Shown: positions 5,156-25,511 of the stretch, piece after piece | How positions within the stretch are numbered: the stretch's first letter is position 1 | Layout of the letters: the number at the start of each line of letters is the position of its first letter | DNA from: a virus | Strand: one strand, 5' to 3' | DNA length: 25,896 nucleotides | Virus record (IMG/VR): IMGVR_UViG_3300017773_000118 | Span: 1 to 25,896 of that record | Made by a program: the position numbers and the translations under genes | Notes under the pieces: generated by a model | Seen by the model: the letters and a program-made list of their open reading frames with translations, nothing else | Database searches by the model: none | Told to the model about the DNA's origin: nothing

Positions 5156-6604
5156 ATGGACTTTCTAGACAATACACCGGATCTGTCCACCCCCGAAGGG
5201 GCACGGAAAGCGATCCACGACGTACACAAGGCCGCGAAGGAACTTCGCGACGAGAACGGCAAGCTTCGAGCCAATATCGGCGCGATGACTACCGACCTCA
5301 AGGCCGCACAGAAGAGCCTCCAAGAGACTCGCGCATCCCTCGCCGCACCTGCCAAGGGTGACAGCGAGCTTGGCCGCTACATCACCTCCAAGGGCATCCG
5401 CACAGTCGGTAAAGAGAATGAGCACGGCGTCTACCTGCCGGGCCTCCTCGATGACACTGCGCGGAATGACTGGCAGAAGGAGTTTCAGAAGAGCTGCGAG
5501 ACATACACCTTCGCATCCGCTGCACTGGGTCGCCCTCACAAGAAGGCTCTTTCTCACGTGCACCACATCATGGCTCAGGCGCCCAGCGCTGTCCGTCGTG
5601 CCTTCGATTCTCAGGCCGGTAGCGGTGGCGAGTTCATCCCCGCCCCAGTGCTGCCCCTTCTGGAGAAGGACGTCATCATTCGCGGACAGGTGATGAGCCT
5701 CTTCGATGAGATCGCCGTTTCGTCGAACTCTCAGACGATGCCTGTGATCAGCAATGGTCTGCGCCCATACCTCAAGGGAAGCGTCACCAGCGACAACCCT
5801 GCACAGTTCGAGGCCTCCAGCCTTAGCACCGCAGAGCGCACCATCGCACCGAAGGGTATGGCAGTTAGAACCGTGCTTTCCGACGATGCCGAGGAGGACG
5901 CAATTTTCGATATGGTGCCTCTGCTGAGGTCCCAAGCGATTGAGGCCCTCGTGTTTGGCGTGGACGATTGCATCGTGAACGGCGACAGCGCTGCGACCCA
6001 TCAGGATGCGATCGCATCTTGGAATACTCGCGGTCTCTGGGGGGCAACCGGTCTCGGTACCTCGATCGATCACCGTCGCGGCTGGCTGGGTCTTCGTGCT
6101 CGTGCCTATGACCAGAGCGCTACCGTCGACCGTTCGACCTACAGCTTCGCTAACTTCCTCGCAGACATGGCAGACCTTGCCACGCCTCGTGGAATCGGCG
6201 GGACTGAAGGGAACTTGATCTACATGATCAGCCCCGAAGGTTACCTCAGCAATATTGCAGGACTCGACCAAGTGGCTTTAGTGTCTTCCTATGGACCACA
6301 GGCAAGCGTGCTCAATGGAGAGATCGCCAAGCTCGGGGGAGCCAGAGTAGTCCTCAGCGACATGCTCACAGCAGACCTCGCAGCCACCGGCCTCTATACC
6401 GGAAGCGGCTCGACGACTGGTGCACTCATCTTCAATGCGTCAAGGCACAAGATGTTCACCCGACGTGGGCAGCGCGTGGAACTTTCGCGCGACGCAACAC
6501 GAGGTATAACCTCCATTATCACGACTTGGCGGGGAACCTTCAAGGCTGTGTCCAGCTCTGCGACCGTCAAAGACGTCATCTACGAGTACAACCTCTCCAG
6601 CTAA
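5156..6604 (+). CDS. Major capsid protein, HK97 fold, with N-terminal scaffold-like region
   Basis: Builds the icosahedral shell. The start was chosen at the ATG at 5156, preceded by CAAGGACAC; the frame is open further upstream but would overlap the protease gene. The 482-residue protein begins with about 65 residues of predicted coiled coil (ARKAIHDVHKAAKELRDENG, then TTDLKAAQKSLQETRASLA), the usual fused delta/scaffold region removed by the protease. The mature part contains GSGGEFIPAPVLPLLEKDVI, the phage capsid phrase around IRGQVMSLFDEIAVSSNSQT, DDCIVNGDSA, and the terminal HKMFTRRGQRVELSRDATRG. Position after portal and protease is canonical. No frameshift or missing segment is apparent. 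Confidence 0.93.
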   Translation: MDFLDNTPDLSTPEGARKAIHDVHKAAKELRDENGKLRANIGAMTTDLKAAQKSLQETRASLAAPAKGDSELGRYITSKGIRTVGKENEHGVYLPGLLDDTARNDWQKEFQKSCETYTFASAALGRPHKKALSHVHHIMAQAPSAVRRAFDSQAGSGGEFIPAPVLPLLEKDVIIRGQVMSLFDEIAVSSNSQTMPVISNGLRPYLKGSVTSDNPAQFEASSLSTAERTIAPKGMAVRTVLSDDAEEDAIFDMVPLLRSQAIEALVFGVDDCIVNGDSAATHQDAIASWNTRGLWGATGLGTSIDHRRGWLGLRARAYDQSATVDRSTYSFANFLADMADLATPRGIGGTEGNLIYMISPEGYLSNIAGLDQVALVSSYGPQASVLNGEIAKLGGARVVLSDMLTADLAATGLYTGSGSTTGALIFNASRHKMFTRRGQRVELSRDATRGITSIITTWRGTFKAVSSSATVKDVIYEYNLSS

Positions 6605-20184: not shown

Positions 20185-20416
20185 AGTGAAAGGCGCACTA
20201 GTGGCTCTCGTGGGCTCGCTCTGCGTGGGTGGCGCTCAGCTAATGGACATGGAGTCGCGGATAGCAGCTCTCGAAGAGGCAGCAGGCATCGAGCCTGAGA
20301 GCGCCGAGGATGACGCTGAAGGCGACGCAGACGCAGAGCCTGAGGCAGAGGCCTCAGAAGAGCCAGAGAGCGCTACAGAGGCCACAGAGGAGCCCGAGAG
20401 CAGCGAGGAGGGATAG
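20174..20416 (+). CDS. Membrane-anchored acidic protein
   Basis: 80 residues from ATG 20174, which follows GGAGACGACG at the usual spacing; ATG 20162 is an alternative adding METT. A single hydrophobic segment near the N-terminus (VKGALVALVGSLCVGGAQL) is followed by a short helix and then a C-terminal half made almost only of Glu, Ala, Ser, Asp, Thr and Pro. The plan is a membrane anchor with a disordered acidic tail. It could be a holin accessory or spanin-like protein. It overlaps the preceding gene by 11 bases. Confidence 0.6.
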   Translation: MDNKVKGALVALVGSLCVGGAQLMDMESRIAALEEAAGIEPESAEDDAEGDADAEPEAEASEEPESATEATEEPESSEEG

Positions 20417-20418
20417 TC

Positions 20419-20748
20419 GTGGACCTGTCGATGATTATGGAGCACATCGACGCGATCGGCCTCGTGCCGCTGCTGCTGGCGCAGTCCTACCACATGAATC
20501 AGAAGATGGATTCTCAAGCCGCAGCCATGGACGCACAGCGCAAGGAGCACGACGAGCGCACCACGGAGATGATCAAGGGCTGGGAGCGTCAGCTGGTGGC
20601 GATGGTTAACAAGTACGAAGACAGGGAAACGGAGATCCGCGCTCGCTACGATAGAGTCGTAGAGACCTACAATACCGAGCGAGACCGGCTATTCCGAGAC
20701 ATGGACCGGAAGCTTGACGACGCTGTGAGATTCTTTCAGGCGAGATAG
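20419..20748 (+). CDS. Coiled-coil protein at end of late operon
   Basis: 109 residues from GTG 20419 preceded by GAGGAGGGA. A short hydrophobic N-terminal stretch (IGLVPLLLAQS) is followed by a long charged coiled coil (QAAAMDAQRKEHDERTTEMI, then QLVAMVNKYEDRETEIRARY and TERDRLFRDMDRKLDDAVRF). It is the last + strand gene before the repeat region, two bases after the previous stop. Plan resembles inner-membrane spanin or coiled-coil holin-antagonist proteins, but the N-terminal stretch is short for a full membrane span, so the role stays open. Confidence 0.6.
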   Translation: MDLSMIMEHIDAIGLVPLLLAQSYHMNQKMDSQAAAMDAQRKEHDERTTEMIKGWERQLVAMVNKYEDRETEIRARYDRVVETYNTERDRLFRDMDRKLDDAVRFFQAR

Positions 20749-20757
20749 CCGCCCGCG

Positions 20758-20792
20758 TCAAGGTGCTCATACAGAATTGATGAGCACCTTGA
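20758..20792 (+). terminator. 13-bp hairpin after the late operon
   Basis: TCAAGGTGCTCAT (20758-20770) and ATGAGCACCTTGA (20780-20792) form a perfect 13-bp stem with a 9-base loop, starting ten bases after the stop of the last structural-block gene. No U-run follows, but the position suggests a transcript end or protection of the late mRNA 3' end. The right arm is also the first unit of a tandem 9-mer repeat. Confidence 0.6.
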
Positions 20793-20816
20793 GCACCTTG
20801 AGCTTCTTGAACACCT
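20781..20816 (+). repeat. Four tandem 9-mers (TGAGCACCT type)
   Basis: TGAGCACCT occurs twice in tandem (20781-20798), followed without gap by TGAGCTTCT (20799-20807) and TGAACACCT (20808-20816). The same AGCACCTTGAGC string appears once again near 25075, in the next control region. The periodicity could bind a phage protein; its meaning is unknown. Confidence 0.7.
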
Positions 20817-20847
20817 TTGGTCGTATGTCGTAACGACGCGCGCTGAG

Positions 20848-20890
20848 TGTGGCGGTGTGGCGGTGTGGCGGATGTGGCGGATGTGGCGGC
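20848..20890 (+). repeat. Five tandem 8/9-mers (TGTGGCGG type)
   Basis: TGTGGCGG is repeated five times: two 8-base units, then three 9-base units ending in A, A and C. Together with the 9-mers just upstream this makes two unlike tandem families in one 239-base gap, an iteron-like layout that could mark a replication origin or a protein-binding array. They could equally be slippage-derived. Confidence 0.7.
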
Positions 20891-20901
20891 AAATACAGGT
20901 A

Positions 20902-20943
20902 GCCCCCGAACACCCCCGGAGCGACTCAGGGGCGAACGGGGGC
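20902..20943. terminator. GC-rich imperfect inverted repeat before the resolvase 3' end
   Basis: GCCCCCG (20902-20908) pairs with CGGGGGC (20937-20943), with an inner CCCC/GGGG continuing the stem across an internal loop. It lies between two convergent transcription units, 45 bases from the resolvase stop codon, so it could end the minus-strand transcript. No U-run is visible on either strand. Confidence 0.4.
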
Positions 20944-20987
20944 AGCCCTGAAGGGCAGAGCGCCCATCCTCGACGCCCCGCGCAAGT

Positions 20988-21497
20988 CTACCCCACAGGG
21001 CCGACGTGAGCCAGCCCGAAGAGGGCGAGACAGCCCGCGTCAGAGAGCCCGTCGTGCGGCTTGCGGCGTCTACCCCAGGTGAGGCTAAGCTCTGGCAGCC
21101 GAGCGCCCACGAGGGCTATAGAGCGCGCCTTCCCCTCACCCTGGAGACCTGCGTACATGCTCCGCGTCCATCGAGCTGACGAGACATCGAGCAGAGGCAG
21201 ACGGAGCGCGTGGACGATGCCGCTCCAGAGTCCCCAGCCGAATCCCGTCGTCAGACAGCTCGATCTTCCTTCGATAGGGCGAGCCTGTTGACGCTCAAGG
21301 ACCACGAGAGCGACCTCTCCGCGCTCGGCTATCTCTTCGAGCACCTGGACCATCCTGCGGACGTTGTAGGCCTTGCCAGCTACGTAGCCCTCCTCTGGAT
21401 GGTCGGCGGCTGTCCACTCTGTAGCCGTGGGTCTGCCTGTGATGTCGAGGGCTACGACGCCCCCTTTCTTGCCTGGGTCGATGCCTATGATCTGCAT
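20988..21497 (-). CDS. RuvC-like Holliday junction resolvase
   Basis: Cuts four-way DNA junctions formed in recombination or replication before packaging. The start was chosen at MQII because it follows AAGGAGCGACAC, the same leader as the + strand early genes; the frame is open further upstream without such a site. 169 residues, matching RuvC size. The RNase H-fold acidic residues are visible: IGIDPGKKGG (D7), LVVLERQQARP (E68) and HDGLSDAGCLALFG (D149, D153). It is the only minus-strand gene in the window and probably works with the ERF annealing and SSB-like proteins encoded to its right. Upstream is a 262-base divergent control region. Confidence 0.85.
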   Translation of the reverse strand: MQIIGIDPGKKGGVVALDITGRPTATEWTAADHPEEGYVAGKAYNVRRMVQVLEEIAERGEVALVVLERQQARPIEGRSSCLTTGFGWGLWSGIVHALRLPLLDVSSARWTRSMYAGLQGEGKARSIALVGARLPELSLTWGRRRKPHDGLSDAGCLALFGLAHVGPVG

Positions 21498-21530
21498 GTG
21501 TCGCTCCTTGATTAGATGTGCCCGCGTAGC

Positions 21531-21575
21531 GGTTCCAACTGGGTGTGGTTTGGTTACCATATCACAGTTGGAACC
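21531..21575. promoter_or_regulatory. 11-bp inverted repeat in divergent control region
   Basis: GGTTCCAACTG (21531-21541) and CAGTTGGAACC (21565-21575) are perfect reverse complements with a 23-base spacer; centres are 34 bp apart, about three helical turns. It lies between the minus-strand resolvase and the + strand early operon. On the minus strand the second arm overlaps TATGGT, a -10-like box also seen in the + strand leader at 21713. It looks like an operator for a dimeric regulator, although an RNA hairpin in the resolvase leader is also possible. Confidence 0.55.
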
Positions 21576-21594
21576 ACCCCCGAAAACACCGCGC

Positions 21595-21759
21595 GCGCCA
21601 CTCGATCAAGGCGATAGGTGCAGATATGATCTTTTCCTATTCGCTGCACTGCGCTTCAGTAGATAAATAAATGATACAAAAGTGGCGCACGTTAGCTGTG
21701 CACGGATTAAGCTATGGTCATGAGGCGGGGAGATAAACCAACCCCACCAAAGGAGCGAC
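21595..21759 (+). promoter_or_regulatory. Promoter-like region, copy B, for the early operon
   Basis: The region starts with GCGCCACTCGATCA (21595-21608), then CCTATTCGCTGCACTGCGCT (21636-21655), both repeated upstream of 25265. TGTGCAC at 21697-21703 is followed after 15 bases (ending in -10-like TATGGT, 21713-21718) by CATGAGGCGGG and the ribosome site AAAGGAGCGAC. The block from TGTGCAC to the ribosome site matches copy A at 1280. No standard -35 is clear. The stretch 21656-21690 is AT-rich. No gene is seen in 21498-21759. Confidence 0.6.
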
Positions 21760-22155
21760 ATGACTACCACGCAAACCACCACATGTGACAAGTGCCTCGG
21801 AAAGGGCTACATCCGCGCCTTTCGCCACATCGCAGGCGGCGACTGCTTCGCTTGCGGTGCTACTGGTCGCGTCGATGCTGCTAAGCAGACCCGATCGGTC
21901 ACGGCCTCGGCCCCGCAGCCGGATGGTCGCATGGTAGACATCGGGATCGCCAGCGTGTGGATGAAAGTCTACAAAGACGGCGGTTTTCAGGCGCAGGTCA
22001 TCGAGATCGAGGACGGTCGCGAGTCCCGAGCTGGAGACATCTACTTTTCAATCCGTCAAGGCCGGGTGGTGGATGTGGAGCTGACGGACGGAATCTGTGG
22101 TCGCTGGACGCGGACAGAAGCGGCAAGCGCTCTCCAAGCGGCCTATCGGGGATAA
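21760..22155 (+). CDS. Zinc-ribbon protein, first gene of early operon
   Basis: 131 residues starting at the ATG after AAAGGAGCGAC. Residues 9-37 have the cysteine pairs CDKCLGKG and CFACGATGRV, a DnaJ-type CxxCxGxG zinc motif with a connecting AFRHIAGGD. The C-terminal part (WMKVYKDGGFQAQVIEIEDG, then GDIYFSIRQGRVVDVELTDG) is a beta domain of unknown type, ending in a helix. Such zinc proteins bind nucleic acid or partner proteins; which one applies here is not clear. A hairpin module and a second zinc-ribbon gene follow. Confidence 0.7.
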   Translation: MTTTQTTTCDKCLGKGYIRAFRHIAGGDCFACGATGRVDAAKQTRSVTASAPQPDGRMVDIGIASVWMKVYKDGGFQAQVIEIEDGRESRAGDIYFSIRQGRVVDVELTDGICGRWTRTEAASALQAAYRG

Positions 22156-22173
22156 TTAAAATTAACCATCACA

Positions 22174-22201
22174 GCCCCCGCAAGGGGGCGAGGAGCGACA
22201 C
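22174..22201 (+). promoter_or_regulatory. GNRA hairpin plus early-type ribosome site
   Basis: GCCCCC-GCAA-GGGGGC (22174-22189) is followed at once by GAGGAGCGACAC and the ATG at 22202. TAACCATCACA precedes the stem, as it does at 25472. Identical in stem and loop to 2112-2127. The stem ends directly beside the ribosome site, so it could modulate initiation or RNA decay between the two cistrons. Confidence 0.55.
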
Positions 22202-25047: not shown

Positions 25048-25125
25048 AGCTCTGCTCATCTGTGGCAGCAGCTCAGCACCTTGAGCCCTCAAGTCTTCAC
25101 CGGCCTGGGGGCTCTTCTGCATTTT

Positions 25126-25264
25126 GCGCCACTCGATCACAGCCGATCGATCGCGCCTATTCGACGCACTGCGCTCTATATGTATATTTGTGTTTGCTTA
25201 TCATGTGCCCATGTAATACTATCGTAGATGTCAGCAGGGGCATCCACCCCGAAGGAGCGACACC
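25126..25264 (+). promoter_or_regulatory. Promoter-like region, copy C
   Basis: Contains GCGCCACTCGATCA (25126-25139) and CCTATTCGACGCACTGCGCT (25156-25175), the latter 18 of 20 identical to 21636-21655. TGTGCCC (25204-25210) is followed by 15 bases ending in the -10-like TATCGT (25220-25225), then a GGGG/CCCC hairpin and GAAGGAGCGACACC. It repeats copy B in the same order and orientation. It starts a new run of small genes. No gene is seen in 25030-25264. Confidence 0.58.
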
Positions 25265-25474
25265 ATGATGACGAACTCAAACGGATACTTCACGCCCTGG
25301 ACTCTTCGCAATAATGGAGCTGCGGTTCGGTTCACTAAGAGCCGCACTGCGGTGCTGGTGGAGTTCAGCGATTCTAACGACTTTTTCTGGAGGTCGGACA
25401 TCATGACTATCGGCGAGGCTCGCAAGGAGTGGGTCCGACTGATGAGGTCAGGATGGGGAACCACTCGAAGCTAA
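25265..25474 (+). CDS. Small phage protein, early-type
   Basis: 69 residues from the ATG after GAAGGAGCGACACC (a second ATG follows at once at 25268). The sequence LRNNGAAVRFTKSRTAVLVE, then SDIMTIGEARKEWVRLMRSG with a WGTTRS end resembles short phage ORFs with an EARKEWxxLxxxGW tail, which are of unknown function. No membrane segment or cysteine motif. A GNRA hairpin module follows it directly. Confidence 0.6.
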   Translation: MMTNSNGYFTPWTLRNNGAAVRFTKSRTAVLVEFSDSNDFFWRSDIMTIGEARKEWVRLMRSGWGTTRS

Positions 25475-25482
25475 CCATCACA

Positions 25483-25511
25483 GCCCCCGAAAGGGGGCAA
25501 GGAGCGACATC
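25483..25511 (+). promoter_or_regulatory. GNRA hairpin plus early-type ribosome site
   Basis: GCCCCC-GAAA-GGGGGC (25483-25498) is followed by AAGGAGCGACATC and the ATG at 25512. The stem is the same as at 22174 but the loop differs (GAAA, another GNRA loop), which suggests that the hairpin itself is kept. TAACCATCACA precedes it as at 22162. Confidence 0.55.

What the first reader, a model, noticed from the sequence alone, without database searches (positions are those of the whole stretch)
20749..20987. Iteron-like region at the late/early boundary
A 13-bp hairpin, four tandem 9-mers and five tandem TGTGGCGG units are packed in 239 noncoding bases between converging genes. Two unrelated tandem families side by side are uncommon by chance and could be a replication origin, recombination site or binding array. 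AGCACCTTGAGC reappears near 25075.
Basis: partly seen in the sequence, partly recalled or inferred. Interest (0 to 1): 0.52.

Follow-up and report, generated by a model that had tools for sequence, protein, structure and literature searches.

The report
Phage spacer with anti-leader RNA hairpin
The repeats are real, but this is not a replication origin: it is a recombination-scarred gap between two converging phage operons, and its best-conserved part is an RNA hairpin whose loop is the exact complement of the short start-site tag that the phage puts in front of many of its genes.

Summary
In detail: a 13-bp hairpin, four 9-mers and five TGTGGCGG units lie in the 239-bp gap between converging genes. 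The origin reading is not supported. A near relative whose contig closes into a circle carries a lambda-O-like initiator with five 20-nt iterons inside its gene, in a part of the genome the window lacks. In relatives the TGTGGCGG array has 3 or 0 units, and more distant relatives with the same gene order have none of the repeats. The gap is a gain/loss site for promoter-plus-gene cassettes: one relative carries a 420-bp cassette between two exact 25-bp repeats, and the window has the single-copy empty form.

The constrained part is 20894-20987, the 3' untranslated side of a RuvC-like gene (94/94 and 90/94 identical). It folds better as minus-strand RNA, into a hairpin whose loop (GUCGCUCC) complements GGAGCGAC, the leader before at least 11 genes. 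A second lineage (about 75% protein identity) has a different stem with the same loop. Unrelated cluster K mycobacteriophages show a parallel: a covarying hairpin with an anti-SAS loop, exact in 7 of 17 sampled. I propose a 3'-end hairpin that may also act as a phage antisense RNA on its own start sites; the antisense step is untested.

The parts
20419..20748 (+). last late gene, 109 aa, function unknown
   Evidence: ORF; 94% identical in two relatives, 67-76% in further contigs; no PHROG hit
20758..20792 (.). 13-bp inverted repeat; left arm is an inverted copy of the 9-mer
   Evidence: fold. In G001 and G002 the left arm keeps full pairing with unit 2 (one G-U) and with unit 4 (one bulged T), by eye from sequences
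20781..20817 (+). four 9-mers TGAGCACCT (variants TGAGCTTCT, TGAACACCT)
   Evidence: four units also in G001 and G002 but with different unit sequences
20815..20839 (+). 25-bp element CTTTGGTCGTATGTCGTAACGACGC; one copy here, two copies flanking a 420-bp cassette in G002
20848..20889 (+). TGTGGCGG x5, variable-number tandem repeat (3 units in G002, none in G001)
20902..20943 (-). hairpin in RuvC 3' untranslated RNA: GCCCCCG-UU-CGCCCCUG-loop AGUCGCUC-CGGGGGUG-UU-CGGGGGC
   Evidence: z -3.59 on minus strand against -1.7 on plus (94-nt stretch)
20918..20925 (+). orphan copy of the shared start leader GGAGCGAC (no start codon after it); on the minus strand it reads GTCGCTCC, the anti-leader loop
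   Evidence: also orphan in the same gap of G001, G002, G003 and G004
20894..20987 (-). constrained non-coding stretch downstream of the RuvC-like gene
   Evidence: 94/94 identical in G001, 90/94 in G002
20988..21497 (-). RuvC-like Holliday junction resolvase, itself preceded by the leader at 21507-21500
   Evidence: PHROG 1770, E 3.4e-14; alignment A1; leader

Best explanation
The gap is the junction between the late operon and the leftward RuvC-like gene. It is a mosaic site where small promoter-plus-gene cassettes come and go; the 9-mers, the 25-bp element and the TGTGGCGG array are lineage-variable remnants (recombination and replication slippage), not an origin. What selection keeps is the RuvC side: a strong hairpin at the 3' end of the RuvC transcript. 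Its most likely basic job is to end and protect that transcript. Because its loop is the exact complement of GGAGCGAC, the start leader shared by many of the phage's genes, it probably also pairs with those leaders and lowers their translation. Shown: sequence, gene order, copy-number variation, cassette and empty site, constraint, the fold, complementarity, and recurrence in a second lineage. Inferred: termination, transcription and processing, pairing in the cell, and any effect on translation.
For: Cassettes: G002 has a 420-nt insert with its own ORF and hairpin between two exact 25-bp repeats; joining the outer flanks gives the window's arrangement. G001 has a different cassette at the same place, carrying a homologue of window gene 21760-22155, with no TGTGGCGG array. 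The phage encodes Erf, SSB and Gam-like proteins; phage Erf recombinases act on short or diverged homology (PMC3945230, passages read). Array variation 5/3/0. Constraint: 0/94 and 4/94 differences against 25/170 and 40/170 at RuvC third codon positions (Fisher p 1.1e-5 and 2.3e-5). Strand: minus-strand z -3.59, -5.04, -3.84 for w, G002, G004; plus strand -1.7, -1.75, -2.46. A stem change in G002 keeps a pair (as U-G) only on the minus strand. Leader: of GGAGCGAC hits on both strands, 11 of 16 (w), 17 of 21 (G001) and 13 of 14 (G002) lie 0-5 nt before an ATG, and the only copy outside genes without a start lies in this gap in all five records. G003/G004 have an unalignable 66-nt gap with the same 8-mer in the loop of a different stem. 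Shuffled gaps contain the 8-mer in 200 of 20,000 and 82 of 20,000.
Against: Only two lineages bear on the loop (w/G001/G002; G003 and G004 are identical here). Against all RuvC codon positions the constraint is weak (p 0.022 and 0.21), and recent recombination could give the same identity. The last bases of the loop motif are often paired in the ensemble. No good U-tract follows the hairpin, and the terminator scan did not pick it. The orphan leader could be a scar of a lost cassette gene. No RNA data exist. Relatives G005 and G006, which use other leaders, show no convincing counterpart.
Confidence: 0.6

Rival explanations
1. Plain convergent-gene spacer: the hairpins are ordinary terminators or mRNA end protectors, and the leader 8-mer in the loop is the scar of a gene that once followed.
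For: Strong hairpins lie on both sides between converging operons. The locus gains and loses genes that carry this very leader. The orphan context CACCCCCGGAGCGACTC resembles the leader contexts elsewhere.
Against: The same 8-mer persists in two lineages whose gaps are otherwise unalignable, each time in a hairpin apex and better folded on the strand where it reads antisense.
Confidence: 0.33
2. Iteron-type replication origin or partition array at the late/early boundary.
For: Two tandem families side by side in non-coding DNA.
Against: No initiator gene found in the window; no A+T-rich stretch (gap 64% G+C) and a skew maximum. Arrays are changed or absent in relatives. Five 20-nt iterons lie inside the O-like initiator gene of G002, and a like array in G001.
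Confidence: 0.03
3. A dedicated site-specific recombination site: the 25-bp element is the target of an integrase or invertase that moves cassettes.
For: Exact 25-bp direct repeats flank the G002 cassette, and the window has the single-copy form.
Against: No integrase or transposase appeared among the proteins scanned (not every ORF was scanned). G001 lacks the right-hand copy. The other two exact 18-mer hits in viral contigs lie in unrelated sequence without alignable similarity to the window. Single-strand annealing by Erf suffices.
Confidence: 0.07

Closest known systems
[quoted passage not shown]
   Same: A short asymmetric sequence with an SD core, conserved beyond the SD, a few bases before start codons of mostly non-structural genes; some copies have an inverted repeat just upstream; four K1 phages are reported to have one lone opposite copy with no gene start.
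   Different: Different sequence (GGAGCGAC against GGGATAGGAGCCC) in unrelated phages. Here the lone copy is shown to sit in a hairpin apex beside a RuvC-like gene; the paper gives no role for the opposite copies. The ESAS are proposed there to be DNA sites, not RNA hairpins.
6C/B11 small RNA of mycobacteria (PMC10470900, passages read)
   Same: Hairpin loops complementary to ribosome-binding sites of several mRNAs, proposed to compete with ribosomes.
   Different: Host-encoded, two loops of cytosine runs, generic G-rich targets; here one loop matches a phage-specific 8-mer that includes bases outside the SD.
Lambda O iteron origin (recalled; search listing only)
   Same: Tandem repeats, and the same replication module type in the relatives.
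   Different: In the relatives the iterons are inside the O-like gene, not in this gap.
Phage morons and cassettes exchanged by Rad52-like recombinases (PMC3945230, passages read)
   Same: Autonomous promoter-gene-terminator units at operon ends; Erf family recombinase.
   Different: Exchange itself was not observed here, only its products in three contigs.

Membership tests
Iteron-type replication origin | repeats conserved in number and sequence among close relatives | tested here: not met
   5, 3 and 0 TGTGGCGG units; 9-mers changed; none in G003/G004
Iteron-type replication origin | cognate initiator gene next to or around the repeats | tested here: not met
   initiator is elsewhere in G002 and has its own iterons
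Iteron-type replication origin | A+T-rich unwinding region | tested here: not met
   gap 63.6% G+C against 59.0% for the window
SAS-type start leader | asymmetric repeat a few nt before start codons, conserved beyond the SD | tested here: met
   11/16, 17/21 and 13/14 hits lie 0-5 nt before ATG; AGCGACA is also conserved
SAS-type start leader | identity with the cluster K consensus sequence | tested here: not met
   different sequence; works like a SAS, not a member of the same family
Antisense small RNA acting on start sites | stable hairpin with loop complementary to target start sites | tested here: met
   duplex about -17 to -18 kcal/mol with each leader, against mean -10.0 for 28 starts without the leader, though the lowest of those is -18.7
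Antisense small RNA acting on start sites | loop kept while stem changes | tested here: inconclusive
   kept in two lineages with different stems; in cluster K exact in 7 of 17 fetched
Antisense small RNA acting on start sites | expressed RNA that changes translation of targets | not testable with these tools
   no expression data
Intrinsic terminator | G+C hairpin followed by a run of T | tested here: not met
   hairpin present, no T-run; scan found no site in the gap

The most novel reading that the evidence does not exclude
Phages that tag their non-structural genes with one shared start leader also encode a single hairpin RNA whose loop is the leader's complement: a built-in master antisense switch that can silence the whole tagged set at once (for example at the early-to-late change). 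It arose independently in this metagenomic phage family and in cluster K mycobacteriophages, where it explains the lone opposite-oriented SAS noted in 2011.
Probability: 0.3. Interest if true: 0.78.

Novelty: new variant of a known kind. Interest (0 to 1): 0.5.

Why it matters
The role of start-associated sequences in phages is an open question in the papers read. A matching anti-leader hairpin in two unrelated families makes it directly testable, in laboratory Mycobacterium smegmatis with phages already in hand. It would also show a simple way for a phage to control many genes with one RNA. The finding as first stated (an iteron origin) is ordinary once relatives are compared.

Tried and rejected
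Origin reading: rejected. Known RNA family: no Rfam match in the gap, the window, or three cluster K loci and L073. tRNA in the window: none. Annotated phages: no DNA match for 20400-21600 and no match for the 109-aa protein; the RuvC-like protein has only 29 distant matches, all under 60% identity, the 20 listed about 30%. Searching the 18-mer of the 25-bp element over viral contigs gave 4 contigs: two are the known relatives and two show no alignable similarity to the window. More distant RuvC relatives (L004-L006 and L085 onward) have other neighbours or gaps and no such loop that I could recognise. G005 and G006 leaders: no supportive orphan. The 9-mer array as coding sequence: a 17-codon ORF is open in three phages (by eye) but has no leader; left as noticed. 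Skew of the circular relative: weak, no clear origin signal.

Cluster K rows against the reading: of 17 fetched loci 7 have the exact 10-nt anti-SAS loop, 6 a pyrimidine loop with about 7-8 of 10 (counted by eye), and 4 none (Marshawn, Pixie, MacnCheese, Nibb). In the three of the 6 whose SAS was checked (Unicorn, Amohnition, Shandong1) the SAS is unchanged. Pixie, MacnCheese and Nibb were left out of the 14-row alignment for that reason. The 17 were chosen by me from 60 rows listed of 177 records.

Full report
WHAT IS THERE. The window is an IMG/VR virus record of 25,896 bp of a tailed phage: portal, tape measure and terminase matches, an endolysin-like gene, then Erf, SSB and Gam-like genes. 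The stretch 20749-20987 lies between the stop of a 109-aa late gene (+) and the stop of a RuvC-like gene (-). The TGTGGCGG array scores above every one of 300 shuffles of the window; the 9-mer array is matched in 20 of 300.

RELATIVES. A search with the RuvC-like protein found two near relatives (98-99% identical) and more distant ones; a search with the 109-aa gene added four contigs at 70-76% and a later one another at 67%. The contigs behind them were fetched. G002 (30,437 bp) has the same about 98 bases at both ends (sequence printed; repeated 25-mers at offset 30,338), so it is most likely a complete circular map of about 30.34 kb. G001 and G002 are rotated relative to the window and contain the roughly 5-6 kb that the window lacks.

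NOT THE ORIGIN. That missing part in G002 holds a Mom-like gene, a ribbon-helix-helix gene, a replication initiator of the lambda O kind (PHROG 270, 391, 345), a ParB/methyltransferase gene and terminase. Inside the initiator gene are five 20-nt direct repeats (L070:2413-2512), with a like array in G001. This is the usual lambda layout (recalled). The gap of the finding is 63.6% G+C, its skew is at a maximum, and its arrays are not kept.

A CASSETTE SITE. In G002 a 420-bp unit (promoter-like sequence, a 62-codon ORF read by me, a terminator-like hairpin) lies between two exact 25-bp copies of CTTTGGTCGTATGTCGTAACGACGC. The window has one copy, with the left flank of the first (18 of 20 bases, by eye) and the right flank of the second (20 of 20). 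In G001 a homologue of window gene 21760-22155 with its promoter region occupies the gap, and the TGTGGCGG array is gone. The array has 5, 3 and 0 units. In G003/G004 the same two genes converge across about 66 bp without any of these repeats. I read the arrays as by-products of this traffic. Erf-type single-strand annealing on short shared sequences is a sufficient mechanism (PMC3945230, passages read), but the exchange itself is inferred.

THE CONSTRAINED PART. The 94 nt nearest RuvC are identical in G001 and differ at 4 sites in G002, while RuvC third codon positions differ at 25 and 40 of 170; against all RuvC positions the contrast is weaker (p 0.022, 0.21). As minus-strand RNA, the 3' untranslated side of RuvC, it folds at -57.7 kcal/mol (z -3.59) against -41.0 (z -1.7) on the plus strand. 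G002 behaves the same (z -5.04 against -1.75), and its one stem change is tolerated as a U-G pair on the minus strand only.

THE LOOP. GGAGCGAC is the shared start leader of this phage group: 11 of 16 hits in the window, 17 of 21 in G001, 13 of 14 in G002, and 4 of 6 in G003 stand 0-5 nt before an ATG. In G004 it is 2 of 5 by script and a third by eye, whose ORF runs off the contig. The remaining copies lie in genes, except one orphan per record, always in this gap. On the minus strand the orphan reads GUCGCUCC at the apex of the hairpin: the complement of the leader. In G003/G004 the gap cannot be aligned with the window's, yet it holds the same 8-mer at the apex of another stem, again folding better on the minus strand (z -3.84 against -2.46). 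Shuffles of the two gaps contain the 8-mer on either strand in 1.0% and 0.4% of cases. The 12-nt loop stretch pairs with each leader at about -17 to -18 kcal/mol; 28 starts without the leader average -10.0, though the best of them reaches -18.7, so affinity alone does not separate targets.

AN INDEPENDENT PARALLEL. Cluster K mycobacteriophages have start-associated sequences, and Pope et al. 2011 note that four K1 phages have a single opposite copy not tied to a gene start (PMC3203893, section 15 read whole). In Anaya that copy lies in the 385-bp gap between genes 96 and 97; on the strand of the neighbouring genes it is the apical loop of a hairpin. The region has blastn matches in 177 phage records. 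I fetched 17 loci in all. In 14 aligned rows the stem covaries (8 of 16 pairs with a two-sided change). The loop is the exact 10-nt anti-SAS in 7 of 17, pyrimidine-rich and partly complementary in 6, and absent in 4. The SAS is unchanged in the three phages with imperfect loops that I checked (Unicorn, Amohnition, Shandong1). The parallel is therefore real in one subgroup and imperfect outside it.

HOW IT MOST LIKELY WORKS. The RuvC transcript ends in a strong hairpin that protects or ends it. The apex presents the anti-leader and can pair with start leaders of the tagged genes, RuvC's own included, competing with ribosomes, as B11 loops are reported to do (PMC10470900, passages read). Expression, processing and effect are not shown. 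The main rival is a scar: a leader left behind by a lost cassette gene.

NOVELTY. In searches (listings, with passages from PMC3203893, PMC12699233, PMC11373665, PMC10470900; a term search of PMC13402561 found none of its terms) I saw no anti-leader RNA described for a phage with start-associated sequences. Subscription papers are mostly not held, so this is a limited negative.

Noticed in passing
window 22163-22200 and 25472-25509; L070 641-677 and 903-939: A repeated 37-38-nt intercistronic unit: hairpin CAGCCCCCGAAAGGGGGC directly followed by the leader GGAGCGACA and a start codon.
   Followed up: partly
L070:2143-3180 (iterons 2413-2512); L068 12310-12395: O-like initiator gene with five 20-nt iterons inside it; the likely replication origin of this phage group.
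   Followed up: partly
window 21598-21655 and 25126-25175: Two copies of a promoter-region block (GCCACTCGATCA ... CCTATTCG-CGCACTGCGCT); similar blocks precede the cassettes in G001 and G002.
   Followed up: no
window 20780-20833 (+): A 17-codon ORF across the 9-mers (MSTLSTLSFLNTFGRMS) that stays open with the same stop in G001 and G002 (by eye); no leader before it.
   Followed up: no
L013 about 5900-6250: Four AAAGGTGT-type repeats in the divergent RuvC/early promoter region of the G003 lineage, operator-like (sequence); one variant also resembles the window 9-mer.
   Followed up: no
L166:34826-34928 and 13 other cluster K loci: A covarying hairpin in a long non-coding gap near the right end of cluster K mycobacteriophages, with no Rfam match in the three loci scanned and overlapped by an annotated ORF in some records.
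   Followed up: yes
L070:1283-1837 and L070:4152-5711: Mom-like DNA modification gene and a ParB-methyltransferase fusion in the relative G002.
   Followed up: no
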